Part shown: positions 26,251 to 59,719 of the stretch, in pieces | Position numbering within the stretch: the first letter of the stretch is position 1 | Layout: each line of letters starts with the position of its first letter | Assembly (NCBI GenBank): GCA_934654605.1 | Contig: CAKUGH010000003.1 | Coordinates: forward strand, 1 to 61,284 | Length of the DNA stretch: 61,284 bases | Direction: 5' to 3' | Source of the DNA: an uncultured Collinsella sp. | GTDB lineage: Bacteria; Actinomycetota; Coriobacteriia; Coriobacteriales; Coriobacteriaceae | Program-made: the position numbers and the translations under genes | The notes under the pieces: generated by a model | What the model was told of the DNA's origin: nothing | What the model saw: the letters and a program-made list of their open reading frames with translations, nothing else | Database searches by the model: none

Positions 26251-26839
26251 ATTGGCATACGTGTGGCCCCACGGTGCCATATCGTTAGCCCAGTAGACCG
26301 CGACGGACGGGGCAGCACGAACGCTGAGGACCTGGTAACTTTCCTCAATTCATATGGGAAAACGGTTGAAAACGATTGCAAATGACCGGTGAACGGTCGA
26401 AAACTACCGTTCACCGATAATCTCAAAACTGGTTCTAACTGGTATTAAGTCAAAAAGACCAATTCATAAATCTTCACAATGACCTGCATTTTTTCCACAC
26501 GCTATTTTTAGCCGCCCTGCGTTGTTTAGACGCAAAGAAAGTTCTGATCTCTCGCCCAATCATTTCGAAACGGTTTCAAAACCGCAGGTAGAAGTGTTAA
26601 CGAGCGGTAAACGGTCGATTTTTTGCCGTGAGCGGTGCAAAAACGTTTTACTGTATGAATCAACGAAAGCGACCTCTTCTGTGGTGATATAGTGACAACA
26701 ACACGTCACGTGGTTACTACCAGTTGAGAGACCACTGGTCTTCAAAGAACGCTTTCAAAGAAGCTTTAAGGGCACCCGCCCGCTGGCTTCCGAAAACCAT
26801 CGAACTCAGATCGTACACACCTTCGGAAGGGAAATTTGA
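26251..26839. promoter_or_regulatory. Long control region of the amino-sugar PTS operon
   Basis: No gene. It holds a GTGAACGGT inverted pair at 26387-26397 and 26406-26416, and a cre-like TGAAAACGATTGCA at about 26367. A related GCGGTAAACGGTCGA lies at 26604-26618. GntR-type sites are TGGTTACTACCAG at 26711-26723 and GACCACTGGTC at 26730-26740. A second cre-like GAACGCTTTCA is near 26748. The density of sites suggests several inputs. Confidence 0.6.
26711..26740. promoter_or_regulatory. GntR-type operators before the PTS operon
   Basis: TGGTTACTACCAG and the palindrome GACCACTGGTC lie seven bases apart. The first 13-mer is repeated exactly at 31003-31015 before agaS. They resemble the dre sites of NagR-type GntR regulators. 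Confidence 0.6.
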
Positions 26840-27283
26840 ATGGTTGGCTTTATTCTTACCGGTCATGGACAGTTCGCACCCGGCCTTGCAAGCGCTATCG
26901 CTATGGTCGCTGGCGACCAGCCCGCTTTTACCGTCGTTCCTTTCGAGGGCGACCAGGCTGCCTCCTACGGTGAGGATCTCCGCGCCGCCATCACCGCCAT
27001 GCGCAAGGAGTGCGATGGCGTGCTCGTCTTTACCGACCTGCTTGGCGGTACCCCCTTCAATCAGTCGATGATGATCGCCCAGGATGTCGACAACGTCGAG
27101 ATCCTGACCGGCACCAACCTTCCCATGGTTATTGAGCTTCTGTTCCTCCGCGGCAATGCTACGCTCGCCGAGCTTGGCGAGCAGGCCGTGACCGTTGGCC
27201 AGACGGGCATCACCGCCCAGACGGTCGCCTCCGTCGCTGGTGCCGAGGAAGAGGATATCTTCGGCGACGAGGACGGCATCTAA
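26840..27283 (+). CDS. agaF: PTS system EIIA component, mannose/GalNAc family
   Basis: 147 residues. Accepts phosphate from HPr on His9 (FILTGHGQFA) and passes it to EIIB. DGVLVFTDLLGGTPFNQS is the second family block. The C-terminus ends in an acidic tail. First gene of a five-gene operon with EIIB, EIIC, EIID and a YajC homologue. The substrate is probably N-acetylgalactosamine or galactosamine, from AgaS and NagA downstream. The stop overlaps the next start (TAATG). Confidence 0.87.
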   Translation: MVGFILTGHGQFAPGLASAIAMVAGDQPAFTVVPFEGDQAASYGEDLRAAITAMRKECDGVLVFTDLLGGTPFNQSMMIAQDVDNVEILTGTNLPMVIELLFLRGNATLAELGEQAVTVGQTGITAQTVASVAGAEEEDIFGDEDGI

Positions 27284-27564
27284 TGGCCGATTTCGGAGCC
27301 AGCGTCCTGAGCTCCTCGGTCGCTCTTTTGGGTCTGCTCGTCATCATGGGTGTGATTTACACCATCTGGTCTCAGATCAACATGAAGAAGAAGCAGAAGT
27401 ACTTCAAAGAGCTGCACACCGAGCTCAAGCCGGGGCAGGAGGTCCTTTTCGCCGGCGGTATCTACGGAACCGTCAAAGGCATCGAAGGCGAGAAGGTCCA
27501 GATCAAAGTCCGATCCGGTGCCGTCGTAGATGTTTCGCGTTACGCGATTCAGGAGATCAAGTAA
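27283..27564 (+). CDS. yajC: YajC-family protein inside a PTS operon
   Basis: 93 residues. One membrane helix near residues 10-30 (LLGLLVIMGVIYTIW), then a basic turn (MKKKQKYF) and the YajC fold ELKPGQEVLFAGGIYGTVKGIEGEKVQIKV. YajC normally accompanies SecDF in protein export. A YajC homologue within a Man-family PTS operon is also known from the pneumococcal hyaluronate locus, so a role in assembly of EIIC/EIID is possible. It overlaps the EIIA gene. Confidence 0.88.
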   Translation: MADFGASVLSSSVALLGLLVIMGVIYTIWSQINMKKKQKYFKELHTELKPGQEVLFAGGIYGTVKGIEGEKVQIKVRSGAVVDVSRYAIQEIK

Positions 27565-27600
27565 CTGTCGTCAGCAATCAACGAAAGGAAGCTGATCAAC

Positions 27601-28083
27601 ATGGCAGAACCCAACATTCTTCTTACCCGCATCGATAACCGACTGGTTCATGGTCAGGTTGCCACCCAGTGGAACTCCACCCTGGGCTCCAACCTCATCC
27701 TCGTCGCCAACGACGACGTGTCGACCAACACCATGCGCCAGAACCTCATGAAGATGGCCGCTCCCACCGGCGTCGCTACGCGTTTCTTCTCGCTGCAGAA
27801 GACCATCGACGTCATTGGCAAGGCGAGCCCGCGCCAGAAGATCTTCATCGTGGCCGAAACACCGGAAGACGTGCTTACGCTCGTCAAGGGCGGTGTGCCT
27901 ATAAAGAAGGTAAACATCGGCAACATGCACATGTCGGAAGGAAAGCGCCAAGTCGCCACCTCCGTCGCAGTTAACGACGAGGATGTCGCTGCGTTTAAAG
28001 AGCTGCAGGAATTGGGGGTGGAGTTGGAGATCAGGCGCGTTCCGAGCACGCCTGTTGAGGACACGAGCAAGCTCTTCTCGTAA
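27601..28083 (+). CDS. agaV: PTS system EIIB component, mannose/GalNAc family
   Basis: 160 residues. Carries phosphate on His17 in RIDNRLVHGQVATQW and hands it to the sugar during transport. The later blocks KIFIVAETPEDVLTLVKGGVPIKKVNIGNMHMSEGK are family-typical. AAAGGAAG precedes the ATG. A second, altered homologue lies at 37341-37823. Confidence 0.9.
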   Translation: MAEPNILLTRIDNRLVHGQVATQWNSTLGSNLILVANDDVSTNTMRQNLMKMAAPTGVATRFFSLQKTIDVIGKASPRQKIFIVAETPEDVLTLVKGGVPIKKVNIGNMHMSEGKRQVATSVAVNDEDVAAFKELQELGVELEIRRVPSTPVEDTSKLFS

Positions 28084-28173
28084 TCCTCATGATCCACGTT
28101 GTCAGGAGTGAAACCCTGACATTCTGTACGTGAAATCCAAAGTGCGTACATACATTTTGAAAGGAGGAGCAAG

Positions 28174-28974
28174 ATGGAATACTCGATCATCCAGGTCGCT
28201 CTGGTCTTCGTCGTCACGTTCATCGCGGCAATCGACCAGTTCAACTTCCTCGAGTCTCTCTATCAGCCCATCGTCACCGGCGCCGTCATCGGTCTTATCC
28301 TTGGCGACCTCAACACCGGTCTTCTCGTGGGTGGTACTTATCAGCTCATGACGATCGGCAACATGCCGATCGGAGGCGCTCAGCCGCCTAACGCCGTTAT
28401 CGGCGGCATCATGGCAGCCATTCTCGCAATCGCTACGGGCCTCGAGCCCAACGCGGCTGTCGGCCTTGCCATCCCGTTCGCTCTGCTTGGTCAGCTCGGC
28501 GTCACCCTCGTCTTCACCCTTATGTCGCCGCTCATGTCCTCCGCGGACAGCATGGCTCACAACGCTGACACCAAGGGTATCGAGCGTCTGAACTACTTCG
28601 CCATGGCTCTGCTCGGCCTGATCTTCGCTGTCGTCGTCACCCTGTTCTTCATCGCTGGTGCCACCATCGGTCAGACCATCGCTTCCGCCATCCCGACCTG
28701 GCTGCAGACCGGTCTCTCCGCTGCAGGCGGCATGATGCGCTTCGTCGGCTTCGCCGTCCTGCTCAAGGTTATGATGAACCGCGATATGTGGGGCTTCTTC
28801 CTCATGGGCTTTGGCCTCGCGCTCATCACCGTTGCCAACGATTCTCTGGCAACCCCTGCTCTGCTCATCCTCGCTCTCATCGGCTTCGGCATCGCTTTCT
28901 GGGACTTCCAGCAGCAGACCGAGCTGAAGGGTGCAGCTGTTTCTGACGGAGGTGACTTCGAAGATGGCATCTAA
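28174..28974 (+). CDS. agaW: PTS system EIIC component, mannose/GalNAc family
   Basis: 266 residues; membrane permease subunit. The start IIQVALVFVVTFIAAIDQFNFLESLYQPIVTG and the GGTYQLMTIGNMPIGGAQPPNAV signature are those of Man-family EIIC. About seven to eight membrane helices. AAAGGAGGA lies before the ATG. The 3' end overlaps the EIID gene. Confidence 0.9.
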   Translation: MEYSIIQVALVFVVTFIAAIDQFNFLESLYQPIVTGAVIGLILGDLNTGLLVGGTYQLMTIGNMPIGGAQPPNAVIGGIMAAILAIATGLEPNAAVGLAIPFALLGQLGVTLVFTLMSPLMSSADSMAHNADTKGIERLNYFAMALLGLIFAVVVTLFFIAGATIGQTIASAIPTWLQTGLSAAGGMMRFVGFAVLLKVMMNRDMWGFFLMGFGLALITVANDSLATPALLILALIGFGIAFWDFQQQTELKGAAVSDGGDFEDGI

Positions 28975-30046
28975 TGAGTATGTGATCCCGGAGCACTACG
29001 AGGATCTCACTCCTGCTCCGCAGCTCGACCAGAAGACCCTCAACAAGATGGCTTGGCGCTCCTGCTTCCTGCAGGCATCGTTCAACTACGAGCGTATGCA
29101 GGCCGCTGGCTGGCTCTACTCCATCATCCCCGGTCTGGAGAAGATCCACACCAACAAGAACGACCTCGCGGCTTCCATGAGCCACAACCTGGAGTTCTTC
29201 AACACCCACCCGTTCCTCGTCACCTTCGTTATGGGCATCGTGCTTTCGCTCGAGCAGAACAAGGTTGACATCCCCACGATCCGCGCCGTCCGCGTCGCCG
29301 CAATGGGCCCGCTCGGTGGTATCGGTGACGCCCTGTTCTGGCTGACGCTCGTGCCTATCACGGCCGGCATCACCTCCAACATGGCCATCAACGGCAACGC
29401 CGCTGCGCCGATCATCTTCCTGGTGATCTTCAACGCCGTCCAGTTCGCCCTGCGTTTCTGGCTCATGAACTGGTCCTACAAGCTTGGCACCAGCGCTATT
29501 GACGCTCTGACCGCCAACATGCAGGCCTTCACCCGCGCCGCTTCCATCATGGGCGTCTTCGTCGTCGGTTGCCTGGTCGTCACCATGGGTGGCACCCAGA
29601 TCAACCTCCAGATCCCCAACGGCACCACCCGTGGCCTGTCCGCCACTACCGTGATCGTCTCCGAGAAGGAGGCCGAGAACTTCACCGGTATGGAGGGCAT
29701 CGATACCGAGACCGCTGAGGCCGGTACCATCGCCATGACCGATGAGGACGGCAACGCCCTCACCGCTTCCGATGCTGACGGCAACGCTGTCGAGTGCGGC
29801 GTCACCGATCTGGGCAACGGCATGGAGTCCGTCACCTACGGCACCGTTACCGAGGATCCGGTCAACTTCTCTGTTGCCGACACCCTCAACACCATCGTCC
29901 CGAAGCTCGTCCCGCTTATGCTTACGCTGCTGCTTTACTACATGTTCGCTAAGCACAGCTGGACCCCGACCAAGGGCATTCTCCTGCTCTTCGTCCTGGG
30001 CATCCTGGGCGCTGGCCCGCTTGGTCTCTGGCCGAGCATCTGGTAA
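28964..30046 (+). CDS. agaD: PTS system EIID component with long external insert
   Basis: 360 residues; second membrane subunit of Man-family permeases. ATG 28964 is chosen because GGAGGTG lies nine bases upstream. The block MAWRSCFLQASFNYERMQAAGWLYSIIPGLEKI is the family start, and RVAAMGPLGGIGDALFW follows. Residues about 225-300 form an acidic, Gly/Thr-rich segment between membrane helices. It makes the protein some 70 residues longer than usual EIID. A terminator follows. Confidence 0.88.
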   Translation: MASNEYVIPEHYEDLTPAPQLDQKTLNKMAWRSCFLQASFNYERMQAAGWLYSIIPGLEKIHTNKNDLAASMSHNLEFFNTHPFLVTFVMGIVLSLEQNKVDIPTIRAVRVAAMGPLGGIGDALFWLTLVPITAGITSNMAINGNAAAPIIFLVIFNAVQFALRFWLMNWSYKLGTSAIDALTANMQAFTRAASIMGVFVVGCLVVTMGGTQINLQIPNGTTRGLSATTVIVSEKEAENFTGMEGIDTETAEAGTIAMTDEDGNALTASDADGNAVECGVTDLGNGMESVTYGTVTEDPVNFSVADTLNTIVPKLVPLMLTLLLYYMFAKHSWTPTKGILLLFVLGILGAGPLGLWPSIW

Positions 30047-30059
30047 GGCTCTAGCTTGA

Positions 30060-30088
30060 GGGGTGTGTCCCTACGCGGCTCACACCCC
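30060..30088 (+). terminator. First hairpin after the PTS operon
   Basis: GGGGTGTG paired with CACACCCC, loop of 13; no T-run. A stronger hairpin follows. Confidence 0.45.
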
Positions 30089-30112
30089 GACCCCTTAAGC
30101 CATGTGTATGTT

Positions 30113-30150
30113 AAAAGCCGCGTGCTCGAAAGAGCGCGCGGCTTTTGTTT
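30113..30150 (+). terminator. Main terminator of the PTS operon
   Basis: AAAAGCCGCG stem with CGCGGCTTTT, inner CTC-GAAA-GAG, followed by GTTTTC. Confidence 0.85.
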
Positions 30151-30230
30151 TCTTGATGATTCGGGTGTGGCAGACAGATAATGCTAAACACCCAAGGTAG
30201 TAGCCGAGTTTGAGAAAATGGGAGGATAGG

Positions 30231-30962
30231 ATGGCGATCGGAGCGCGTAAGCAACCGCTGTACGATCAGCTGGTCGATATTCTGACCGAAAAGATTGACC
30301 ATGAATATCGCGCTGGTGACATGATTCCTTCCGAGCGTGAACTTTCGGAGCGCTATGGTCTCTCGCGCACTACGGTACGCCTGGCTCTGCAGGAACTGGA
30401 GCGTTTAGGACTGGTGGTTCGGCAGCACGGTCGCGGTACCTTTGTGACCGACCGTTCGGCAAAGGCAACCAATCTTATGCAGTCCTACAGCTTTACCGAG
30501 CAGATGCGCGCGATGGGGCGCGACCCCGAGACCACGATTCTCGAGTTTTGCGAGATGGAGGCCGATAAGAATCTGGCCGAGCATATGGGATTGCGTATCG
30601 GTGATCGCATTTTTAAGCTCAAGCGCCTTCGTTCTGCCGACAACATGCCCATGATGGTCGAACGCAGCTATCTACCGGTTCGTCAATTTATGTCCCTAAA
30701 GCGACCGCTGCTGGAGCGTAAGCCGCTTTACGATGTGATTGAGCAAGACTTTCAGCAAAAGATACGCGTGGCCGAAGAGGAGTTCTATGCGAGCATAGCC
30801 CGTCCCACCGATGCCCATCTTTTGGGAATTGTCGAGGGCTCGCCCGTGCTCGATTTGGTCAGGACTACGTATAACGAGTCAAACGAGGTTGTGGAGTATA
30901 CGCTCTCGGTTGCTCGTGCCGATCAGTTTAAATACAAGGTTTACCACCAGCGTAGCGACTAA
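30231..30962 (+). CDS. GntR/UTRA-family regulator
   Basis: 243 residues. An N-terminal winged helix (IPSERELSERYGLSRTTVRLALQELERLGLVVRQHGRGTFV) and a C-terminal UTRA ligand domain, the HutC/NagR/AgaR2 type. It probably represses the PTS operon and agaS-nagA and is released by an amino-sugar phosphate, because TGGTTACTACCAG stands before both. ATG 30231 with GGGAGG is chosen over TTG 30210. Confidence 0.88.
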   Translation: MAIGARKQPLYDQLVDILTEKIDHEYRAGDMIPSERELSERYGLSRTTVRLALQELERLGLVVRQHGRGTFVTDRSAKATNLMQSYSFTEQMRAMGRDPETTILEFCEMEADKNLAEHMGLRIGDRIFKLKRLRSADNMPMMVERSYLPVRQFMSLKRPLLERKPLYDVIEQDFQQKIRVAEEEFYASIARPTDAHLLGIVEGSPVLDLVRTTYNESNEVVEYTLSVARADQFKYKVYHQRSD

Positions 30963-31002
30963 TGTTCGCATTGTTTCCATATGATGATTCTTTGCATTTA
31001 AC

Positions 31003-31020
31003 TGGTTACTACCAGATAAC
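31003..31020. promoter_or_regulatory. GntR-type operator before agaS
   Basis: TGGTTACTACCAG followed by ATAACC, lying just upstream of a consensus -10 TATAAT at 31032-31037. A bound repressor would cover the -35 position. Confidence 0.6.
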
Positions 31021-31031
31021 CAACCGAAGTG

Positions 31032-31037
31032 TATAAT
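31032..31037 (+). promoter_or_regulatory. -10 element of agaS
   Basis: TATAAT, 40 bases before the start codon. The -35 region is occupied by the operator and has poor consensus. Confidence 0.6.
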
Positions 31038-31076
31038 TGCACGTCAGAGGATTACTTCTAGAGAGAGGTATTAGAA

Positions 31077-32243
31077 ATGTTCGAGAAGAGTGTCGAGGAG
31101 CTCACCGAGCTCGGCGCCCAGATCACCACGGCCGAGATTGCTCAGCAGCCCGAGCTTTGGCGTGATACGCTCAACATCTATCGCGAGAACAAGGAGGCCA
31201 TCGAGGCCTTTCTGACCGAGGCTCGCGCTATGGGCGAGGGCCGTCTGTCCGTTGTCTTCACCGGTGCCGGTACGTCCGACTATGTTGGCGATACCTGCGC
31301 CCCGTACCTGCGTCACGCTGGCAACACTGATCTCTACGACTTTAAGCCCATCGCCACGACTGATATCGTGAGCGCCCCGCGCGACTTCCTGCGCGCCGAG
31401 GATCCCACGCTCGTGGTTTCCTTTGCCCGCTCTGGCAACAGCCCCGAGAGCCTTGCTGCTGTCGCCGTTGCCAAGGAGCTCGTCCACAACGTCAAGTTCC
31501 TCAACATCACCTGCGCTCCCGAGGGCAAGCTCGCTGTCGAGTCCGCCGATGATCCCAATGCGCTGACGCTGCTCATCCCGCGCGCCAACGACAAGGGCTT
31601 TGCCATGACCGGCTCCTACACCTGCATGACCCTGCTCTCTACCCTCATCTTTGACGAGGCTTCCGACGAGCAGAAGGCCGAGTGGGTCGAGACCATCGCC
31701 AAGATGGGCGAGGAGGTCATCGCTCGCGAGTCCGAGGTTGCCGACTACCTCGCTGGCGACTTCAACCGCGTGACCTACCTGGGCTCCGGCTCCTTTGGCG
31801 GCCTTGCCCAGGAGAGCCAGCTCAAGATCCTCGAGCTCGCTCACGGTCTGGTTGCCACTTCCTACGACACCTCCATGGGCTATCGTCACGGACCTAAGTC
31901 CTTCGTCGACGATAAGACGCTCGTCTTCGTGTTCGTCAACAACGACGCCTACACCCGTCAGTACGATATCGACATCCTCAACGAGATCGGTGGCGACAAG
32001 ATCGCTCAGCACACCGTTGCCGTTCAGCAGGATGGCGCTACCGTCTACGAGGGCGAGTCTTTCACCTTTAAGGGCTATGAGGCACTTCCCGAGGGCTACC
32101 TCGCCCTGCCGTTCGTGATGTTTGCCCAGGCCATCAGCCTGCTCAACTCCGTGCGCGTGGGCAACACGCCCGATACGCCGAGCCCCACCGGCACGGTCAA
32201 CCGCGTGGTTAAGGGCGTGACGATTCACCCCTTCACCGCTTAA
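31077..32243 (+). CDS. agaS: SIS-domain deaminase/isomerase AgaS
   Basis: 388 residues. AgaS turns galactosamine-6-phosphate into tagatose-6-phosphate with loss of ammonia. Two sugar-isomerase domains are visible: VVFTGAGTSDYVGDTCAPYL and VVSFARSGNSPESLAAV in the first, LGSGSFGGLAQESQLKILELAHGLV and MGYRHGPKSFVDD in the second. Length fits AgaS rather than GlmS. AGAGAGGT precedes the ATG. Followed by nagA. Confidence 0.9.
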   Translation: MFEKSVEELTELGAQITTAEIAQQPELWRDTLNIYRENKEAIEAFLTEARAMGEGRLSVVFTGAGTSDYVGDTCAPYLRHAGNTDLYDFKPIATTDIVSAPRDFLRAEDPTLVVSFARSGNSPESLAAVAVAKELVHNVKFLNITCAPEGKLAVESADDPNALTLLIPRANDKGFAMTGSYTCMTLLSTLIFDEASDEQKAEWVETIAKMGEEVIARESEVADYLAGDFNRVTYLGSGSFGGLAQESQLKILELAHGLVATSYDTSMGYRHGPKSFVDDKTLVFVFVNNDAYTRQYDIDILNEIGGDKIAQHTVAVQQDGATVYEGESFTFKGYEALPEGYLALPFVMFAQAISLLNSVRVGNTPDTPSPTGTVNRVVKGVTIHPFTA

Positions 32244-32261
32244 TCGCGTCCCCCTGTAAGG

Positions 32262-32299
32262 GCGCCCGTCCGCTCATAACGGCGGGCGGGCGCTTTTTG
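32262..32299 (+). terminator. Terminator after agaS
   Basis: GCGCCCG..CCGC paired with GCGG..CGGGCGC, then TTTTTG. Confidence 0.85.
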
Positions 32300-32360
32300 T
32301 TTTACGTGAGCTGGGTATAAGCATCACCACAGTTAACTGCTTTAGAAGCAAGGAGTGCAT

Positions 32361-33530: not shown

Positions 33531-33542
33531 CGACAGAAAAAG

Positions 33543-33574: not shown

Positions 33575-33604
33575 ATGGGTTAACGCTCAAAAGCACCTTA
33601 ACAG

Positions 33605-36222: not shown

Positions 36223-36225
36223 GAG

Positions 36226-37107: not shown

Positions 37108-37183
37108 TGGAGCCAGCGACCGGGCTCGAACCGGTGACCCCCGCTTTACGAGAGCGGTGCTCTACCAACTGAGCTACGCTGGC
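37108..37183 (-). tRNA. tRNA-Thr (anticodon CGT)
   Basis: 76 nt including encoded CCA. Acceptor stem GCCAGCG/CGCTGGC, D-arm GCTCAGTTGGTAGAGC, anticodon stem CCGCT/AGCGG with loop CTCGTAA, and T-arm ACCGGTTCGAGCCCGGT. Anticodon CGT reads ACG codons. Its own promoter and terminator make it a single-gene unit. Confidence 0.97.
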
Positions 37184-39947: not shown

Positions 39948-41204
39948 CTAGCGAAGCAGGCGATACTTCTGCCCCCTGCCGGTGCCTTCAACTGTCGCCA
40001 GGCCTGTCTCAACGAGTTTTTTGAGGATGCGAAGCAGCTTCGAGCGGCTAAAGGTAACTTTGGCCGCAAGCTCGCTTGTCGATTGAGGGTGTACTCCACT
40101 CAGCAGTCCGAATACGGTAAGTTCGTCGCCTTCGAGCCCGGGGTTATCCATGAGTAGGGGAAGCGTGACCACAATGGCGTTATCCGATACTTGAAAACGA
40201 GGCTTTTTGATGCTGTCTTTATAGGTGTCTCGAATTCGCATAATGCCCGTTCCGAATGCCTCGATAAGGCCTAGGCGCAAAAAGACTTCGGCAAGAATAT
40301 GATTGCGTCTAACGAACAGCATGTCGGACAGGTATTCATCGACAGTCATGCTTGCTGGCAAGCCGCCGGGCGAGGCAACTTCCACGCGGTCGTCGAACAT
40401 CGAGATGCGAATGTGCGCGGGTACATCCCAAGTCCTGTGAACGATTGCATTGGTAATGGCCTCGCGGAATGCTTCGAGCGGAATGAGCTCCTTGCGGATG
40501 CGTTCCATGCCCTTGATTTCTTCGTAGCAGTACTGAGCTTCAAATAGCTCAAGAGCGCCGTCAATCTCCGTTAAAACCGATGCATGTTCGAGAGTTTTGC
40601 GCTGCTTAATGAGGTTGATGGTGTTGCCAAACACCGCCATGTCGATACCTGGGAAATCGTTCTCGTTCGCGAGCAGTTCTGCCGCGTTGTTGTAGGTTCC
40701 GGTCTTATCGAGCAGGCCGAGGGTTTTGAGAGTATCGGTTGTGAATGACTGAAGTGAGAGCTTTGCTGTTAGGCGATTCTCTAAAACGGTGAAAGATAGA
40801 TCTTGCTTGCTTGCCGGGAGCTGTTCAAAGGAGAGGTTTTGACCCTCGAGTACAAGACGCGAAAGGCCTAGGGTATCAACTGGCATGGTCGCGGTGTCAT
40901 TGCGCTTGTATGCCTTCGAGCGGTATAGGTAAGGCTTCGACCTGCCGGGAAAGACCGTAAGCTCTACCGTTGCATCGGGCTCGTTGATTTTTAAGGAGTA
41001 ATCAGGCTGGGGGATGATCGAATCGTTAATCTTGTTTTCGATATCCAGGCAGGTCTGCTTGGGGTCATCGAGGCCAACGGTTTCTCCGTTGTCGTTAATT
41101 CCAAATAGAACGCGTCCTCCCGTGCTGTTCGCATAAGCGGAGACGGTTTTAAGGAACGAATTGGTGACGCATTCCTTGAATTCAAGATCTTTGGATTCTT
41201 GCAT
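39948..41204 (-). CDS. AlbA_2/Schlafen-like ATP-binding protein with C-terminal HTH
   Basis: 418 residues of the COG2865 type, often labelled RecG-like helicase although no helicase motifs are present. The N-terminal AlbA_2 domain is ESKDLEFKECVTNSFLKTVSAYANSTGGRVLFGINDNGE. A GHKL-like ATPase region follows (EAITNAIVHRTWD, DRVEVASPGGLP, GTGIMRI). A winged helix closes the protein (STSELAAKVTFSRSKLLRILKKLVE). Probably a DNA-binding regulator. Eight 12-bp repeats stand just upstream. It converges with lacR, with no gap. Confidence 0.85.
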   Translation of the reverse strand: MQESKDLEFKECVTNSFLKTVSAYANSTGGRVLFGINDNGETVGLDDPKQTCLDIENKINDSIIPQPDYSLKINEPDATVELTVFPGRSKPYLYRSKAYKRNDTATMPVDTLGLSRLVLEGQNLSFEQLPASKQDLSFTVLENRLTAKLSLQSFTTDTLKTLGLLDKTGTYNNAAELLANENDFPGIDMAVFGNTINLIKQRKTLEHASVLTEIDGALELFEAQYCYEEIKGMERIRKELIPLEAFREAITNAIVHRTWDVPAHIRISMFDDRVEVASPGGLPASMTVDEYLSDMLFVRRNHILAEVFLRLGLIEAFGTGIMRIRDTYKDSIKKPRFQVSDNAIVVTLPLLMDNPGLEGDELTVFGLLSGVHPQSTSELAAKVTFSRSKLLRILKKLVETGLATVEGTGRGQKYRLLR

Positions 41205-45053: not shown

Positions 45054-45329
45054 AGAGCTCCTTTGCTACTTGATGCGCGATGCATGTGGATGGAACTGGT
45101 CGTCGATGGATGGTCAGGACTGCCCGGAAACCTTCCTGCTTAAGGAAGGCATTGCGAAATGACAACGTAGGACATTTCGTTAATGACAACGTAAGACATT
45201 TTTGGAAGAGCAACAAGGATTTACGGGTGAACGGTCGATATTGTCCGATAAACGGCTGATTTGTCAGTCGGGCAGGTAGTGTATGCTAGAACACAAAAAA
45301 CAAGCGATGCAAAACCGACTGGAGAAGTA
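45054..45329. promoter_or_regulatory. Divergent control region lacE1/lacI1
   Basis: Holds two palindromic operators (CGAAATG..CATTTCG at 45155-45179 and AATGACAACGTAAGACATT at 45182-45200) and one GTGAACGGT box at 45227-45235. Confidence 0.6.
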
Positions 45330-49901: not shown

Positions 49902-50257
49902 GCAAAGCTCCTAAGAGTCGGTGGGTTAGCAACGATGGTAACGTTTGGACCTTGTTTGCCAAAATGTTGACGTTGCCATTTTGTGACACAAAAAAAGACG
50001 CGAACCGGTGGCCCCTGTGCCTGTGGACCGTCGATTCCTTGCGCGTAAACGTTTGAGCCGCCCGGTGGCTCTGTGTTTGCACAATGGCAACGTTAACATT
50101 TGGGCGACAAAAGCCGTTCGGGGACGCAGGATTGTCGGTGAACGGTAGGTTTTGGGTGGTGAGCGTATGGCGGGGGAGGCGTTGGATATACTTGGAGGCG
50201 TTCATTTTGTCTGTTGGGATGCCCGCGATGGCATCGTTGACATAGAAAGATCGACCT
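49902..50257. promoter_or_regulatory. Divergent control region lacE2/lacI2
   Basis: No gene in 356 bases. Three related operators: GATGGTAACGTTTGGACC (49934-49951), AATGTTGACGTTGCCATT (49963-49980) and AATGGCAACGTTAACATT (50083-50100). One GTGAACGGT box at 50138-50146. Confidence 0.65.
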
Positions 50258-51262: not shown

Positions 51263-51476
51263 GGTGCGGACCTGTTTGGGTCGCCATTAATTGTGTTTGA
51301 TATTGTTCGAAATGGTTTAAAAACCGTTCACGGGTGAAAATCGACCGTTCATAGCTTGAAATTGCGTTTTGGATTGTTCTTTTTTGTTTGAATGTTAATG
51401 TTTCTGGCATACACAACGCAGCGCGTATGCCCGGACGCGATGCTCTCCATTGGTTCATATGTGAAAGGAACGCAAT
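51263..51476. promoter_or_regulatory. Control region of lacF
   Basis: Two DeoR-type motifs (51303-51322 and 51374-51393, the second an almost perfect match to TTGTTCGNNNNTGTTYRAAT). An ACCGTTCAC box at 51323-51331 and a partial one (TCGACCGTTCA) at 51341-51351 are also present. Confidence 0.6.
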
Positions 51477-51876: not shown

Positions 51877-51883
51877 CTGCATA

Positions 51884-53052: not shown

Positions 53053-53086
53053 ACGGCAAAGCGAGCTTGGAAGATCGAACCGTAAG

Positions 53087-53119
53087 AAGGGCGGCCGAGA
53101 TGCGTTCTCGGCCGCCCTT
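53087..53119 (+). terminator. Terminator of the membrane protein gene
   Basis: 14-bp perfect stem AAGGGCGGCCGAGA with its complement, loop of 5, then ATTTG. Confidence 0.85.
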
Positions 53120-53358
53120 ATTTGTTGAGCACGTGAACGCTCACGCCTCTGCCAGGCCCAAGCGGTCAACAAACACCCGTGAACGGTATTTGTTCAAAAA
53201 AGAACAAAGATAAACAAATAGTTGTTGCAGTCGTTGTTCGAATGTGTTCAAATAAACATGAACAGTGAAGAACCGCACATTCAGATGCCCGGACCTGAAC
53301 GCGATTCAACACTTCCAAACAGAAACTACGCACCTGCGTATCTCTCAAGGAGGATGTC
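53120..53358. promoter_or_regulatory. Control region of lacAB
   Basis: GTGAACGGT box at 53179-53187, an inverted TTTGTTC/GAACAAA pair at 53189-53208, and a DeoR-type motif at 53234-53253. No gene. Confidence 0.6.
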
Positions 53359-53787: not shown

Positions 53788-53850
53788 CGAGAGCCACCGA
53801 GAACTCGAACTTCTACCTCAACTTGTGAATTCAGACGAAAGGACGTTCTG

Positions 53851-54375
53851 ATGAAGAAGACCATCGCAATCGGTTGCGACCATATCGTTACGGACGAGAA
53901 GATCTATCTGGCCGACCGTCTTGAGCAGGCCGGCTACCAGGTGCTCGACTGCGGCACCTACAGCCACAGCCGCACGCACTATCCCATCTACGGCAAGGCC
54001 GTGGGCGAGGCCGTTGCCAGCGGCAAGGCCGACTTTGGCGTGGCCCTGTGCGGCACCGGCATCGGCATCACCAACGCCGTCAACAAGGTTCCCGGCGCCC
54101 GTTGCGCCCTGGTCCGCGACATGACCTCTGCCCTGTATGCCCGCCGCGAGCTCAACGCCAACATCGTGGGCTTTGGCGGCAAGATCACCGGTGAGTTCCT
54201 GATGGCCGACATTATGCTCGCTTTCCTGGAGGAGCCCTACGAGCAGACTCCCGAGCACGACGCCCTGATCGCCAAGATCGACGCCTGCAACAAGGCCGAC
54301 GCCGAGGCCCAGGCCGACCCGCACTTCTTTGACGAGTTCTTGGAGAAGTGGGACCGTGGCGAATACCACGATTAG
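53851..54375 (+). CDS. lacB: Galactose-6-phosphate isomerase subunit LacB
   Basis: 174 residues, RpiB-like. [46 protein letters not shown], and the active-site Cys in [17 protein letters not shown] are LacB signatures. The tail [17 protein letters not shown] is also typical. Works as a heteromer with LacA just upstream. Confidence 0.94.
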
Positions 54376-54494
54376 CGGGTATCCGGCGTAATTAACTAGT
54401 CCGTTGACGGCTCGCGTTTCTGTGAGGGGGCGCGGGCCGGTTTTCTATCAGCCCAATTGACTCGACGGGCTGGCGTAAGAAAGGGAAGGCTCCT

Positions 54495-55376
54495 ATGGAG
54501 TTTGTTCTTGATAACGGTTCTGTTCGCGTGGCACTGAGCACGGCTGGCGGATCGTTCACTTCGATTAAAGCCAACGGTCGTGAGTACCTGTGGCAGGGCG
54601 ATCCTTCGGTCTGGTCGGGTCAGGCGCCCATTTGCTTCCCCATCTGCGGCGGCCTTCGTGACGGCCGCGCGATGACCATGGGCGGCCGCGAGGTCAAGCT
54701 TGCCCGTCACGGTTTTGCCCGCAAACAGGAGTGGAAGCTCGAGGAGCAGGGCGACAACATCGTTGCGCTGAGCCTGGATTCTGCTGATCACGCCGAGCTG
54801 CTCGAACAGTATCCATACCCGTTTAAGATCGCCGCGCGCTATGCGATCGATGGCAAAAAGATCAGCATTTCGTATGAGGTGACCAACGAGGGAACCGAGG
54901 ACATGCCGTTCTTTGTGGGCGGCCATCCCGGCTTTAAGTGCCCGCTCGACGAGGGTGAGTCCTACGACGATTACGAGCTTCGATTTGAGCAGCGTGAGGC
55001 GGCAGAGCTCTGCACCGCCGTTCCCTCGACGGGCCTGATCGATGTCGAGCATCGCAGTAAGAACCCGATGGTTGGCCACGACCTGCCGCTTACCCACGAG
55101 CTCTTCGACTTTGCCGAGACCATCTTTGATGTGCTCGAGAGTCGTGTGGTCACGCTGACCAAGAAGACCGAGGACAAGGGCGTGCGCCTGACATTCCCCG
55201 GTATGCCGTACCTGATTGTGTGGAGCAAGCCCGAGGGTGATTTTGTCGCGGTTGAGCCGTGGGGCGGCCTGTCCACCTGCTCCGACGAGGACAATATCCT
55301 GGAGCACAAGCGTGGCTGCCTGGTGGCCAAGCCGGGGGAGACCGTCACCCGTGGCTTTGAGATCGAGATTCTTTAA
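54495..55376 (+). CDS. lacX: LacX-type aldose epimerase-like protein, copy 2
   Basis: 293 residues, the same length as copy 1 at 34346-35227 and mostly identical: WSGQAPICFPICGGLRDGRAM, KLARHGFARKQEWKL, PFFVGGHPGFKCPLDEGE and VAVEPWGGLSTCSDED. Part of the lacA-B-X-C run. AAGGGAAGG precedes the ATG. A module duplication explains the two copies. Confidence 0.86.
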   Translation: MEFVLDNGSVRVALSTAGGSFTSIKANGREYLWQGDPSVWSGQAPICFPICGGLRDGRAMTMGGREVKLARHGFARKQEWKLEEQGDNIVALSLDSADHAELLEQYPYPFKIAARYAIDGKKISISYEVTNEGTEDMPFFVGGHPGFKCPLDEGESYDDYELRFEQREAAELCTAVPSTGLIDVEHRSKNPMVGHDLPLTHELFDFAETIFDVLESRVVTLTKKTEDKGVRLTFPGMPYLIVWSKPEGDFVAVEPWGGLSTCSDEDNILEHKRGCLVAKPGETVTRGFEIEIL

Positions 55377-55432
55377 CGAGCTATCGTATGTTTGGGGACG
55401 CACACGTCGTGCCCCGGAAACAGGAGATCAAC

Positions 55433-56368
55433 ATGATTCTGACCGTTACCATGAACCCGTCGATTGATACGCGCTATCAGCTCGACAAGCTGATCATCGA
55501 CGATGTGAACCGTGTGACGCCCGAAAAGACCGCTGGCGGCAAGGGCCTCAACGTGAGCCGTGTGCTGCTGCAGCTGGGTGACGACGTGCTCGCGACCGGT
55601 CTGCTCGGCGGCCACATGGGCGCCTATATGGCCGAGCTTATGGATGCCGACGGCGTCAAGAACGACTTTGTGCCCATCGCCGGTGAGACGCGCATTTGCC
55701 TGAATATCCTGCACGAGGGTAATCAGACCGAGCTGCTGGAGAGCGGCCCGCAGATCGCCCCGTCCGAGCTCGAGGCCTTTACGGCTAAGTTCGCCGAGCT
55801 TGCAGCGAAGGCGGACGTTGTGACGCTTTCGGGCTCGCTGCCGCGTGGCGTCGATGCCGGCTACTATGCCGAGCTCGTCAAGATTGTCGAGGAGGCGGGC
55901 GCCAAGGTGCTGCTCGACACCTCGGGTGCATCGCTGGAGGCCGCGCTGGCATCCGACGCCAAGCCCGAGCTCGTGAAGCCCAACCTGACCGAGATTAACG
56001 GCCTACTGGGTACGTCCTTTACGACTGACGACGTCGACGCGCTGCGCGAGGCACTTGCCGCCGACGGCCGCTTTGCCGGTATCCCCTGGGTTGTCGTCTC
56101 GATGGGCGCTGCCGGCTCGGTGGGCTTCCATGAGGGCCGTGCGTTCCGCGCCAAGACGCCCGCGATTGCCGCTGTCAACGCGACGGGTTCCGGCGACTCG
56201 ACGATCGCCGGCTTTGCGCATGCTATTGCTGCCGGCGCCGACGATGTCACCGTGCTTAAGACCGCCAACACCTGTGGCAAGCTCAATGCCATGGATCCCA
56301 AGACCGGCCACCTGGTAATGGACCGCTGGGACGAGGTCTACAACAGCGTCGAGGTTACAGAGTTGTAG
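55433..56368 (+). CDS. lacC: Tagatose-6-phosphate kinase, copy 2
   Basis: 311 residues, PfkB family, the lac-branch kinase making tagatose-1,6-bisphosphate. KTAGGKGLNVSRVLLQLG, SGSLPRGVD, KPNLTEINGLLGTSF and NATGSGDSTIAGFAHA are shared with copy 1. ATG 55433 with CAGGAG; the frame is open upstream without a site. The aldolase LacD that should follow is absent. Confidence 0.9.
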   Translation: MILTVTMNPSIDTRYQLDKLIIDDVNRVTPEKTAGGKGLNVSRVLLQLGDDVLATGLLGGHMGAYMAELMDADGVKNDFVPIAGETRICLNILHEGNQTELLESGPQIAPSELEAFTAKFAELAAKADVVTLSGSLPRGVDAGYYAELVKIVEEAGAKVLLDTSGASLEAALASDAKPELVKPNLTEINGLLGTSFTTDDVDALREALAADGRFAGIPWVVVSMGAAGSVGFHEGRAFRAKTPAIAAVNATGSGDSTIAGFAHAIAAGADDVTVLKTANTCGKLNAMDPKTGHLVMDRWDEVYNSVEVTEL

Positions 56369-56386
56369 CGGTTGCGGCTCCTAATA

Positions 56387-56458
56387 GAATGAGCGTGGAT
56401 AATCTCCCACTTTTGGTGCCCATACGAGCCCAAAGTGGGAGATTTTCCACGCTCATTC
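56387..56458. repeat. Long imperfect palindrome between lacC2 and galT
   Basis: Arms GAATGAGCGTGGA and TCTCCCACTTT pair with AAAGTGGGAGA and TCCACGCTCATTC, with a 3-base inner mismatch. Total span 72 bp; no T-run. Confidence 0.75.
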
Positions 56459-56470
56459 GGGGTAGTAAAA

Positions 56471-56508
56471 AACGGCGCCCGCCGGCGATGTTGCTGGCGG
56501 GCGCCGTT
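56471..56508 (-). terminator. Terminator of galK-galT
   Basis: 13-bp stem AACGGCGCCCGCC with its complement, followed on the minus strand by TTTTTTAC. Confidence 0.85.
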
Positions 56509-56556
56509 GTCGTGTGGGGCGGAAATGATCCGTTTTCCTTCGTCCCCAAGGAATCA

Positions 56557-58185
56557 TTACAGCGAGTCGATGAAGCGCTGCTGGGCGGCGCGGCCGGTTT
56601 CGTCCCACTTAAAGACGCCGGCGTTGTCGAGCACATGACCAAACACCACACCGACCTCCTCGTGCAGGATATCGATGGCATCATCGGCCGTAAGTTCATC
56701 GGCGCGGCGGGCATAGACGTCCAGGGCCCATGCGGCGTGGCTACGGCAAAGGTCGTCGCCCTCGAGCGCGGCGGCAAGGTCGTAGCTCGCGTCGACCTTG
56801 GCTGCCAGCAGGTGCTCGCGAACGGCACCGAGCTCGGGAACCAGGCGCGGCGGAAGAATGGCCAGGCCCATGACCTCAATCAGGCCGATGTTCTCCTTTT
56901 TGATGTGGTGATACTCCGCATGCGGATGGAACACGCCCAGCGGATGCTCGTCGGTCGTAATGTTGCAGCGAAGTGCCAGGTAGGCCTCGTAGATCTCGCC
57001 ACCGGCATTACCTCGGGAGTCGACGCGGCGGATGACGGGCGTCACGGTGTTGTGAGCCACGCCGTCGGCCGTGTGCGCGATGACGCCCACGGACTCGTCG
57101 GTCCACTCGCGCCAGGCGAGGATGATCTTCTCGGCGGCGTCGAGCAGCTGAGCACGGTCGTGCGAGCGCAGGCGCAGCACCGAGAGCGGCCACTGCAGCA
57201 CGGTGCCGGTGACCTGGTCAAAGCCGGGCACGCTAAACTGCGAGACCTCGGCCGCGTGCATCATCGGGAACTCATGCGCGCCACCCTGGAAGTGGTCGTG
57301 CGACAGGATCGAGCCGCCCACGATGGGCAGGTCGGCGTTGGAGCCGATAAAGTAGTGCGGGAACAGGTCCACAAAGTCGAGCAGGCAGGAGAGACCCTTG
57401 CGATCGACGTGCATCGGACGATGCTCGGAGCTCATGGCAATGCAATGCTCGTTAAAGTACGCGTACGGGCTGTACTGGAAGCCCCAGCGCTCGCCGTCGA
57501 GCTGAATGGGGATAACGCGCAGGTTCTGGCGAGCGGGGTGAGCGCCACCGTCGGCTGCGGCGGAGCGTCCGGGATAGCCCTCGTTTTCGATGCAGAGCTG
57601 GCAGGCGGGATACTTCTCGCCCGTGTTCTTGGCAGCACCGGCCGCGGCAATGTCGCGTGGGTCCTTCTCTGGCTTGGACAGGTTGATGGTGATCTCGAGA
57701 TCGCCCCAGTTGGTGGGGGTGCTCCATTTGATATTGCGCGCGATGGCGGCGCGGCGCACATAGCCGGCGTCGCAGCACAGGCCGTAGAACCAGTCGGTCG
57801 CGGCGCGGGGCTCGTTGACGCCCATGCGCCCATTGAACTCCTCGTTTACAACCGAAGGCCTCGGCATAAGCACACCCATGATGCGCATGGCGATACGGTC
57901 GCGGCCCGACGCCGTGTCCTCGGCGGCACCGTTGGCGACGGCGGCTTCGGAAAGCGCGGCGAGCGTGCCCTCCAGATCAAAGTCGGGGAGGGTATCGGGG
58001 TGCAAAAGCGAGAGCTTCTCGGTCTGCAGCGCCCAGGTCATGTCGAGCGCGGGACCCGTGGCGCCAATGCACTCCAGAATGGTGTTGTAGGCCCAGATGC
58101 GGTCGTCCTGTCCGATCATGGATCGGTGGATGGCGTACTCGATCAGGTTCTGCGCGGCCTCGCGCACGTCGGTCATTACAGCCAT
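56557..58185 (-). CDS. galT: UDP-glucose-hexose-1-phosphate uridylyltransferase, class II
   Basis: 542 residues. Moves UMP between UDP-glucose and galactose-1-phosphate in the Leloir pathway. The class II (GalT2) form: start LIEYAIHRSMIGQDDRIWAYNTIL, middle NWGDLEITINLSKPEKDPRDIAAA, and GGSILSHDHFQGG (catalytic His region). Overlaps the end of galK by ten bases, so translation is probably coupled. An alternative ATG lies at 58176. Confidence 0.92.
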   Translation of the reverse strand: MAVMTDVREAAQNLIEYAIHRSMIGQDDRIWAYNTILECIGATGPALDMTWALQTEKLSLLHPDTLPDFDLEGTLAALSEAAVANGAAEDTASGRDRIAMRIMGVLMPRPSVVNEEFNGRMGVNEPRAATDWFYGLCCDAGYVRRAAIARNIKWSTPTNWGDLEITINLSKPEKDPRDIAAAGAAKNTGEKYPACQLCIENEGYPGRSAAADGGAHPARQNLRVIPIQLDGERWGFQYSPYAYFNEHCIAMSSEHRPMHVDRKGLSCLLDFVDLFPHYFIGSNADLPIVGGSILSHDHFQGGAHEFPMMHAAEVSQFSVPGFDQVTGTVLQWPLSVLRLRSHDRAQLLDAAEKIILAWREWTDESVGVIAHTADGVAHNTVTPVIRRVDSRGNAGGEIYEAYLALRCNITTDEHPLGVFHPHAEYHHIKKENIGLIEVMGLAILPPRLVPELGAVREHLLAAKVDASYDLAAALEGDDLCRSHAAWALDVYARRADELTADDAIDILHEEVGVVFGHVLDNAGVFKWDETGRAAQQRFIDSL

Positions 58186-59381
58186 GCCGCGTAAGCCCCC
58201 TTGTCAGAGATAGCGTAGTGACGGGCAGAGCCCTCGCCCAGCCAGCCATTCATCTTGGCGATGAAAGTATCGACCAGGTCGAGCGGCACGAAGGCCTGGA
58301 TGGTGCCGCCAAAGCCGCCGCCATGGATGCGGACGGCGCCGCGGCCGTCGAGCACGTGCTCGGCCAGCGCCAGGGCATACATGGAGGGCTGCTCGGAGCC
58401 CAGCTTGGCAACGACATTCTGCAGGTACATGGCGGAGCTGGCGCCGGACTCGCGCGTCAGGACCAGGAACTGGTCGATGTCGCCGGCGTTAAGAGCTGCC
58501 CAGCGCTTGTCGACCAGGCCGTTCTCGTACCAGTAGTGAACGGCGCGCAGGCAGGCGCGGTCGCCCAGCTTGGCGCGCAGCTCGGGGAGCTTGGCGTCAA
58601 AGTCGGCAACGTCGACCTCACACAGGCGTGCTTTGCCAAACTCGGCGGCGACGTCCTGCATCTCGCGCGGAACGGCGGCGTAGTCGTCGGTGGCTGCCAC
58701 ATGGTCGGCGCCAACCTTAACGAGTACGAGTGCATAGCCGTGATCCTCAAAGTTGAGCTCGAGCTTCTGAGTTTTAGGCTGAGCCTGGTCCTCAAAATCC
58801 ATGTAGGCAAGGCCGCCCAGGCACACGGCAGCCTGGTCCATCAGGCCGCAGGGCTTGCCGTAGTAGTTGTTCTCGGTGCGCTGACTCATCTGGGCGAGCG
58901 CGACGGGCTCGATGGCAGGCGCGCCCCAAAGCGTCTCCATGGCGCGGCCGTATGCTGCCTCGACGGCAGCGGAGCTGGAAAGGCCGCCGCCCGAGGGGAC
59001 GGAGCAGGTGAAGGCGAAGTCGAAGCCGTGGGGCTCAACGCCCAGGGCTGCAACTTCATGGGCCATGCCGCGGACGAGACTCGCGGACGTGCCCTTCTCG
59101 GACTCCTGAACATCCAGCGTGTCGAGCGTGATCTCAAAGGTGGGGTAGCCCTCGTCGGCAACGTGGACCTTGTTGGTGTCGGTTGCCACGGCAATGCCGT
59201 CGACGGCGACATCGAGCGAGCCGGCGATGACGTGGCCGCCCTCGTGGTCGGTGTGGTTGCCGCTGATCTCGGAGCGGCCGGGCGCGTGCACGTAGAGCAC
59301 CTGGCGGTCGCCGATGGGGCCAAACTCCTCCTCAAACAGCTTGGTGAGCGTGGCGAGCGTCTTTTCGTCGGGGGCGGTCAT
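58176..59381 (-). CDS. galK: Galactokinase
   Basis: 401 residues; phosphorylates alpha-galactose at C1. GHMP kinase motifs are APGRSEISGNHTDHEGG, the ATP loop CSVPSGGGLSSSAAVE, and GGGFGGTIQAFVP. The variant ISGNHTDHE instead of IGEHTDY is seen in other galactokinases of gut bacteria. ATG 59381 with AAAGGA is chosen over the longer frame. First gene of galK-galT; galE is not in the window. Confidence 0.93.
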   Translation of the reverse strand: MTAPDEKTLATLTKLFEEEFGPIGDRQVLYVHAPGRSEISGNHTDHEGGHVIAGSLDVAVDGIAVATDTNKVHVADEGYPTFEITLDTLDVQESEKGTSASLVRGMAHEVAALGVEPHGFDFAFTCSVPSGGGLSSSAAVEAAYGRAMETLWGAPAIEPVALAQMSQRTENNYYGKPCGLMDQAAVCLGGLAYMDFEDQAQPKTQKLELNFEDHGYALVLVKVGADHVAATDDYAAVPREMQDVAAEFGKARLCEVDVADFDAKLPELRAKLGDRACLRAVHYWYENGLVDKRWAALNAGDIDQFLVLTRESGASSAMYLQNVVAKLGSEQPSMYALALAEHVLDGRGAVRIHGGGFGGTIQAFVPLDLVDTFIAKMNGWLGEGSARHYAISDKGAYAAWL

Positions 59382-59719
59382 GAGGGTCCTTTCTTTGGCG
59401 CGAACAGGTGAGTTTTGCGTCGTTATGAGTACGTTAACAATTTGAAGCGGCGTGAACTCAGCATCCACGATGCCGCACGTTAAGGGCTATGTTAACGTAC
59501 TCATAACACAACGCTTATTACTTTTTGAGAATCTGGTAATCGGTCGAAATTCGACCGTGAACGGTAGTGCCGTATGGACTTATAGAGCAGAAAAGCTGCA
59601 GCTAAAAAAAGTAGAGTACGTTAACATGCGTCCGACGATAGCGGTCCTCCGCGCGGGCTCTATTCCTGCACGGGCCGGTATGTACGCTCTTTTGATCTCG
59701 CAAGGGTGAAGGTGATCTT
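59382..59719. promoter_or_regulatory. Divergent control region galK/galR
   Basis: No gene in 338 bases. GTTATGAGTACGTTAACA at 59422-59439 and its exact complement at 59490-59507, plus GAGTACGTTAACA at 59614-59626. A GTGAACGGT box lies at 59557-59565 beside GGTCGAAATTCGACC. Confidence 0.7.

What the first reader, a model, noticed from the sequence alone, without database searches (positions are those of the whole stretch)
26387..59565. A shared GTGAACGGT box marks the sugar-uptake and galactose promoters
The exact 9-mer GTGAACGGT or its complement occurs at 26389-26397 and 26406-26414 (amino-sugar PTS), 45227-45235 (lacE1/lacI1), 50138-50146 (lacE2/lacI2), 51323-51331 (lacF), 53179-53187 (lacA) and 59557-59565 (galK/galR). 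Near-copies flank several of them, often continuing as GGTCGA. About 0.5 copies would be expected by chance in 61 kb counting both strands. All seven lie in the intergenic control regions of transport and galactose genes that have different local regulators. That pattern points to a global carbon regulator in Coriobacteriia distinct from classical cre sites. I did not search all coding DNA exhaustively.
Basis: partly seen in the sequence, partly recalled or inferred. Interest (0 to 1): 0.8.

Follow-up and report, generated by a model that had tools for sequence, protein, structure and literature searches.

The report
LytTR-type carbon-regulon operators in Collinsella
The repeated GTGAACGGT word is half of a two-part DNA control site, found before sugar-uptake and energy genes in Collinsella and its relatives, and is most likely read by a conserved LytTR-type two-component regulator, which would make it a new kind of global carbon switch for these gut bacteria.

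Summary
In detail: seven exact GTGAACGGT copies, all intergenic, 0.46 expected by chance. The 9-mer is half of a larger operator, two direct repeats with a 21-bp period. On the complementary strand this reads ACCGTTCAC-12 bp-ACCGTTCAC, the anatomy published for LytTR regulator sites, with a core like AlgR's CCGTTCGTC. Of 66 dereplicated placements, 64 are intergenic. An exact tandem gives 295 hits against 14 reversed controls in 52 Coriobacteriaceae, 81 against 40 in 79 Atopobiaceae, and background elsewhere. Tandem-bearing targets include PTS, galactose, uronate, arginine deiminase, phosphoketolase and transporter genes; pyruvate formate-lyase and lactate dehydrogenase have single boxes only. 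A response regulator, RR-B, has relatives in 289 of 296 class genomes. In nine genomes where it is the only LytTR gene found, tandems total 26 against 3 reversed. No binding was tested. Eggerthellaceae keep an RR-B homologue without the tandem, and one assembly has tandems but no RR-B. Best reading: a LytTR-controlled carbon and energy regulon, probably activated; six paper searches found no account.

The parts
14151..14188 (+).
   Evidence: tandem PWM score 32.2, intergenic; PF00156, the name ComF-like is mine
26366..26424 (.). Compound operator before the mannose-family PTS operon: inverted exact pair 26389-26397(+)/26406-26414(-) with an 8-bp gap, and weaker overlapping 21-bp partners
26605..26642 (-). 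Second tandem operator in the same PTS control region (GTAAACGGT and GTGAGCGGT, 21 bp apart); ACC strand reads away from the PTS gene
   Evidence: PWM score 34.1
45225..45262 (-). Tandem operator between lacE1 and a LacI gene; ACC strand reads toward lacE1
   Evidence: PWM score 37.0
50136..50173 (-). Tandem operator (second half weaker) between lacE2 and a LacI gene; ACC strand reads toward lacE2
   Evidence: PWM score 18.5
51317..51354 (+). Best tandem operator of the window, 122 bp before lacF; ACC strand reads toward lacF
   Evidence: PWM score 45.4
53156..53193 (-). Tandem operator before lacA; ACC strand reads away from lacA, an exception to the orientation rule
   Evidence: PWM score 29.8
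59534..59571 (-). Tandem operator between galK and a LacI gene; ACC strand reads toward galK
   Evidence: PWM score 32.4
26840..27283 (+). PTS EIIA-man gene, probable target
   Evidence: PF03610
   Evidence: PF02378, PF02302
   Evidence: PF02378, PF02302
51477..51815 (+). lacF, PTS EIIA of lactose/cellobiose type, probable target
   Evidence: PF02255
53359..53787 (+). lacA-type isomerase subunit, probable target
   Evidence: PF02502
58176..59381 (-). galK, probable target (galT 56557-58185 follows)
   Evidence: PF00288, PF10509, PF01087

Best explanation
GTGAACGGT is one half-site of a LytTR operator: two direct repeats ACCGTTCAC separated by 12 bp, with an A/T-rich stretch in the spacer, mostly 100-200 bp before the start codon. 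A response regulator with a LytTR DNA-binding domain (RR-B) probably binds as two subunits on one face of the DNA. In Coriobacteriaceae and Atopobiaceae it is paired with a LytS-type, GAF-containing histidine kinase (HK-B) in a conserved cluster. Bound this way it would mostly activate sugar PTS, galactose and uronate catabolism, phosphoketolase, arginine deiminase and other uptake genes, laid over the local LacI, GntR and DeoR regulators. Single boxes before pflB, ldh and arcC may be weaker members. Shown: the boxes, their spacing, intergenic position, neighbouring genes, phyletic spread and the presence of RR-B. Inferred: that RR-B binds, that it activates, and that HK-B senses a metabolic signal.
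For: Period: in 42 dereplicated intergenic sites the strong direct-repeat offsets are +21 and -21 (z 5.0 and 4.2; next 2.6). Of 150 listed AACGGT...AACGGT pairs with gaps of 8-22 bases, 77 have period 21. Published LytTR sites are 9-bp repeats spaced 10-13, often 12, bp (passages), and AlgR reads CCGTTCGTC. Position: 64 of 66 dereplicated placements are intergenic (62 non-overlapping places); among 22 between codirectional genes, 18 have the ACC strand reading toward the gene start, p=0.004. Most LytTR regulators bind upstream of -35 and activate (passage). Spread: 295 vs 14 reversed in 52 Coriobacteriaceae, 81 vs 40 in 79 Atopobiaceae, background elsewhere. Regulator: PF04397 genes in 43 of 43 genus genomes and 35 of 35 further genomes chosen for family or tandems. 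An HK-B homologue lies in the RR-B locus in 56 of 56 Coriobacteriaceae, 28 of 30 distinct Atopobiaceae and 1 of 10 Eggerthellaceae loci. In nine genomes whose only LytTR gene found is RR-B (G004, G014, G030, G041, G103, G121, G157, G189, G286) tandems total 26 against 3 reversed; without G121 and G157, which were chosen for having tandems, 22 against 3. In 5 related Atopobiaceae loci a tandem-like site (scores 24-30) lies about 60 bp before RR-B.
Against: No binding or expression data. LytTR sites are said to share no common consensus (PMC4847170), so the core match is weak evidence, and AlgR's own sites are often not 12-bp repeats. Eggerthellaceae carry an RR-B homologue (58-60% identity in listed rows) with the same central LytTR motif, yet the tandem is at background there. 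G230, a 96%-complete assembly, has 4 tandems but no RR-B match at E<=1e-20, only another LytTR gene; it may be an assembly gap. Only 1 of 71 Coriobacteriaceae RR-B loci has a tandem in the stretch held (L259), so autoregulation is not general. The gapped pattern over all spacings is hardly above its reversed control (152 vs 118 in 21 genomes), and the control's spacings are not shown; the fixed-spacing control is. Boxes at pflB, ldh, arcC, an amino-acid permease and an oligopeptide-type binding protein have no good tandem partner. The exact inverted pair at 26389/26406 has an 8-bp gap. No fixed distance to a -35 or -10 sequence was found. Enrichment in Atopobiaceae is only twofold.
Confidence: 0.74

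Rival explanations
1. A LytTR protein other than RR-B reads the box, either RR-A (the paralogue with its own LytS-type kinase, near arcC) or one of the further LytTR genes, or several share it.
For: G001 has RR-A and RR-B about 5.9 kb apart, downstream of box-bearing arcC. The two regulators are similar, with the same RVHR motif. The 12-mer GGTGAACGGTMG is commonest in the C. aerofaciens-like genomes, most of which have two neighbouring LytTR genes.
Against: Genomes with RR-B as the only LytTR gene found still have tandems, 26 vs 3 reversed in nine genomes. G004, among those with the most 12-mers, has only RR-B.
Confidence: 0.12
2. The reader is not a LytTR protein but another regulator that tolerates 21-bp direct repeats, for example an AraC/XylS-type protein.
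For: AraC-family sites can also repeat every 21 bp (recalled, no call). The LytTR assignment rests on anatomy, core and co-distribution only. G230 has tandems without RR-B.
Against: The ACCGTT core and 12-bp spacer match published LytTR sites. The conserved half-site is about 12 contiguous bases, short for an AraC monomer (recalled).
Confidence: 0.1
3. Classical carbon catabolite repression: a degenerate cre (CcpA-like LacI protein) or CRP site.
For: Several targets (PTS, pfl, arc) belong to CcpA/CRP-type regulons in other bacteria (recalled). LacI-type palindromes lie near several boxes (seen by eye).
Against: No inverted partner at a fixed short distance; the best inverted offset has z 2.8 against 5.0 for the direct repeat.
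Confidence: 0.02
4. Chance or compositional artefact.
For: The bare 9-mer also occurs in coding DNA: 13 of 33 copies in G001.
Confidence: 0.01

Closest known systems
LytTR response-regulator operators (AgrA, VirR, HdrR/BrsR; AlgR core CCGTTCGTC)
   Same: 9-bp direct repeats about 12 bp apart upstream of promoters; ACC-type core; candidate regulator of REC-LytTR type with a LytS-type kinase
   Different: PTS, galactose, uronate and arginine-deiminase targets instead of virulence, bacteriocin or competence genes; seen in Coriobacteriaceae and weakly in Atopobiaceae
E. coli YpdAB (and BtsSR) pyruvate-responsive LytS/LytTR systems
   Same: LytS-type kinase plus LytTR regulator, direct-repeat site, nutrient-related output (YpdB passages; BtsSR recalled)
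   Different: YpdB is reported to have one direct target gene; here exact tandems average 5.7 per Coriobacteriaceae genome (295 in 52) and the core differs
CcpA/cre and CRP regulons
   Same: Overlapping target classes (recalled): PTS, arc, sugar catabolism
   Different: Different site geometry (direct repeat, not palindrome) and probably a two-component regulator instead of a LacI or cAMP protein

Membership tests
LytTR operator | Two direct repeats of about 9 bp with a 10-13 bp spacer | tested here: met
   Period 21 = 9 + 12 (literature passages)
LytTR operator | Half-site like known LytTR cores (ACC..., AlgR CCGTTCGTC) | tested here: met
   Consensus TACCGTTCACcGnnnaAaanCnACCGTTCACc from 64 intergenic placements compared; but PMC4847170 says LytTR sites share no common consensus
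LytTR operator | A LytTR protein encoded in genomes that carry the site | tested here: met
   43 of 43 and 35 of 35 chosen genomes; G230 has a LytTR gene but no RR-B
LytTR operator | Direct binding by a LytTR protein | not testable with these tools
   needs EMSA or DAP-seq
LytS/LytTR two-component system | REC-LytTR regulator next to a PF06580/HATPase kinase | tested here: met
   RR-B with HK-B, RR-A with HK-A in L148; synteny
LytTR Regulatory System (LRS, HdrRM type) | LytTR regulator paired with an inhibitory membrane protein instead of a histidine kinase | tested here: not met
   RR-A and RR-B have receiver domains and adjacent histidine kinases
CcpA/cre | Palindromic cre operator | tested here: not met
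   Direct repeat, no fixed inverted partner; cre consensus recalled
CRP/FNR | TGTGA-N6-TCACA or TTGAT-N4-ATCAA palindrome | tested here: not met
   Half-site and spacing differ; consensus recalled
AraC/XylS operator | 21-bp direct repeat of a longer, two-box half-site | tested here: inconclusive
   Period fits; the conserved half-site is one block of about 12 bases; AraC features recalled, and no AraC candidate was sought

The most novel reading that the evidence does not exclude
In Coriobacteriaceae, and partly in Atopobiaceae, a single LytS/LytTR two-component system (HK-B/RR-B) does the job that CcpA or CRP does elsewhere: it takes in a metabolic signal through a GAF-containing kinase and sets the whole programme of sugar PTS uptake, fermentation and arginine-deiminase energy generation over local repressors.
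Probability: 0.45. Interest if true: 0.85.

Novelty: new variant of a known kind. Interest (0 to 1): 0.74.

Why it matters
How Collinsella and its relatives decide which carbon and energy source to use appears not to be described; searches of an open-access library listed no such account. This gives an exact operator, a target list, a candidate regulator and kinase, and testable predictions. It would also show a LytTR protein as a broad carbon regulator, where the systems I read about act on few or specialised targets.

Tried and rejected
cre/CcpA and CRP palindromes: disfavoured by the direct-repeat geometry. A PhoB-type 11-bp repeat: offset 11 is not among the eight best offsets. Fixed distance to -35/-10 hexamers: none clear, best z 2.6 and 2.7. 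Autoregulation: a scan without dereplication found a tandem in 1 of 71 Coriobacteriaceae RR-B loci and in 5 of 34 Atopobiaceae loci, there about 60 bp before RR-B and in one clade. One search had missed those five because it scanned only placements with CG in the first half-site. Link of 12-mer count with RR-A: suggestive in C. aerofaciens-like genomes, but RR-B-only genomes keep tandems. Full-length RR-B against the PDB: the rows shown match its receiver domain; the LytTR part alone gave weak AgrA matches (best E 0.0017 to another LytTR protein). Paper searches listed no prior account. For papers I saw listings, and passages only of PMC4064291, PMC6193735, PMC4227749, PMC11347149, PMC4847170 and PMC10269533. 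Target functions were not compared with a genome background. Rows dropped: near-identical sites were dereplicated (60 to 42; 25 to 21; over 85% identity). The tally used 104 rows (G014-G037, 59 at period 21); the remaining 46 listed rows were added (18 at period 21), giving 77 of 150 listed of 152 matches. Four of the 34 Atopobiaceae loci are the same contigs fetched twice; one search recounts 30. Loci were fetched because they hold a box or RR-B, not at random.
Full report
The observation. Shuffles predict 0.46 and none of 100 reached seven. All seven are intergenic by my own codon-usage gene finder, although intergenic DNA is 15.1% of the window. The window's assembly is not held; the nearest genome is G001. 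There the bare 9-mer occurs 33 times against 18 for the reversed word. I placed 20 copies in intergenic and 13 in coding DNA. One intergenic copy is in RNase P RNA, and several have no repeat partner, so the 9-mer alone overcalls.

The real unit. Aligning 42 dereplicated intergenic sites shows a conserved cGGTGAACGGTMG core. The strong direct-repeat offsets are +21 and -21 bp (z 5.0 and 4.2; the next best is 2.6); the best inverted offset has z 2.8. In 21 genus genomes with at most five exact 12-mers, AACGGT-N{8,22}-AACGGT was searched. Of 150 listed rows 77 have period 21 (59 of 104, 18 of 46). Over all spacings that pattern is little above its reversed control (152 vs 118), whose spacings are not shown, so the fixed-spacing search below is the proper control. 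The consensus of 64 intergenic placements, read on the other strand, is TACCGTTCACcGnnnaAaanCnACCGTTCACc.

The window read with that model. A tandem model built from 21 sequences outside the window, some of them from orthologous promoters, gives ten placements of 18.5 or more. The best coding placement scores 17.4, and the best of six shuffles 10.5. It adds 26605-26642 in the mannose-PTS region and a new operator at 14151-14188, before a ComF-like gene. The region 26366-26424 is compound: an exact inverted pair with an 8-bp gap plus weaker 21-bp partners.

Targets. Genes with a tandem in front, in the window or in Collinsella loci, include lactose-type PTS genes and galK, glucuronate isomerase, sucrose-like, beta-glucoside-like and sorbose-type PTS genes, a YfcC-like antiporter, arginine deiminase, a sugar-binding protein, GntP, a PRD antiterminator and a PTS EIIA (annotations; tandems). 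Several NCBIfam names are below the family cut-off, hence 'like'. Boxes without a good tandem partner (best score 17 or less) lie before pyruvate formate-lyase, lactate dehydrogenase, carbamate kinase, an alpha-fucosidase, an amino-acid permease and oligopeptide/nickel-type binding proteins. Some neighbours are unrelated or uncertain, for example polyphosphate kinase, homoserine dehydrogenase and thiamine diphosphokinase. From the listed Atopobiaceae tandems I chose 20, before knowing their genes. The gene in the ACC direction is a PTS gene in 7, arcA in 2, and phosphoketolase, beta-galactosidase, FGGY kinase and an MFS sugar transporter in one each: 13 of 20. The other 7 point to something else, to a protein without a Pfam match, or to no gene. 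I did not compute enrichment against a gene background.

Position and direction. Of 66 dereplicated placements in the window and the fetched loci, 64 are intergenic (62 non-overlapping places). Sixty have a called gene on both sides: 35 lie between divergent genes, 22 between codirectional genes and 3 between convergent genes. In the codirectional set 18 of 22 have the ACC strand reading toward the gene start (p=0.004). The median distance to the start codon is 168 bp for the 53 sites with a gene in that direction. Most LytTR regulators bind upstream of -35 and activate (passage of PMC11347149), so this favours activation, but no fixed spacing to -35 or -10 was seen. The lacA site at 53156 runs the other way.

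Spread. GGTGAACGGTMG gives 242 hits against 20 reversed in 43 genus genomes. RAACGGT-N14-RAACGGT over 296 class genomes gives 295 vs 14 in 52 Coriobacteriaceae (51 of 52 with a hit), 81 vs 40 in 79 Atopobiaceae, 20 vs 17 in 76 Eggerthellaceae, 4 vs 2 in 27 of family f4, and 16 vs 10 in 62 others. The family names are mine: f1 and f3 are judged from contigs of equal length in the named collection (Collinsella, Enorma; Olsenella, Atopobiaceae), and f5 as Eggerthellaceae is inferred.

What reads it. LytTR sites are described as pairs of 9-bp repeats spaced 10-13 bp (PMC11347149), mostly 12 bp in LRS operons (PMC6193735), or direct or inverse repeats with 11-13 bp and no common consensus (PMC4847170). 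AlgR's consensus is CCGTTCGTC, though its sites are often not 12-bp repeats (PMC4064291). ACCGTTCAC-N12-ACCGTTCAC fits the anatomy. LytTR genes (PF04397) are in 43 of 43 genus genomes. G001 has two, RR-A and RR-B, each REC-LytTR and each beside a PF06580 kinase, on the contig that begins with box-bearing arcC. RR-B has a match in 289 of 296 class genomes at E<=1e-20 (not all are orthologues): 80-100% identity in listed Coriobacteriaceae, 63-71% in listed Atopobiaceae and 58-60% in listed Eggerthellaceae. An HK-B homologue lies in the RR-B locus in 56 of 56 Coriobacteriaceae, 28 of 30 distinct Atopobiaceae and 1 of 10 Eggerthellaceae loci, which parallels the spread of the tandem. The gene finder was trained on Collinsella and may miss genes in the other families.

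The sharpest link. In nine genomes (G004, G014, G030, G041, G103, G121, G157, G189, G286) the only LytTR gene found is RR-B, by coordinates. They hold 26 tandems against 3 reversed. Without G121 and G157, which I had picked for having tandems, it is 22 against 3. If a LytTR protein reads the box, there it is RR-B. This does not exclude a non-LytTR reader. In five related Atopobiaceae loci a tandem-like site with one weak half lies about 60 bp before RR-B, in the gap after the kinase gene: possible autoregulation in one clade.

Against. Nothing was bound or expressed. Eggerthellaceae keep the homologue, with the same GFFRVHRGY motif, without the tandem. G230 has 4 tandems but no RR-B match, perhaps an assembly gap. 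In Coriobacteriaceae the RR-B locus shows a tandem in only 1 of 71 loci.

Novelty. LytTR regulators and their sites are known. A LytTR-type operator regulon over sugar PTS, galactose and uronate catabolism and arginine deiminase in Coriobacteria was not found in print by searches of an open-access library. I call it a new variant of a known kind.

Noticed in passing
window 16449-16709 (+): A raiA RNA (RF03072, 144.6 bits), a structured RNA, lies after the ComF-like gene that has the newly found operator at 14151; the ORF called at 16438-17781 overlaps it and is probably mis-started.
   Followed up: partly
L031 around 3190: A perfect palindrome AGGTGAACGTTCACCT beside the box upstream of glucuronate isomerase, with a LacI gene next to it: probably the local repressor's operator, sharing the GTGAAC letters by coincidence or overlap.
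   Followed up: no
L148 6142-8300: RR-A/HK-A, a paralogous LytS/LytTR pair next to an amino-acid permease and an amidohydrolase, present in only some Collinsella loci; its targets are unknown.
   Followed up: partly
L279, L281, L283, L287 about 6902-6940; L299 4322-4359: A tandem-like box (one strong, one weak half) about 60 bp before RR-B in five related Atopobiaceae loci, possible autoregulation.
   Followed up: partly
window 37111-37183 (-): A tRNA gene among the PTS genes.
   Followed up: no
window 39948-41204 (-): A Schlafen/AlbA_2 plus HATPase_c_4 protein among the sugar genes.
   Followed up: no
G284 (Atopobiaceae): Sixteen LytTR domains in one 2.7-Mb genome, compared with 1-8 in the other 34 genomes of the same search.
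   Followed up: no
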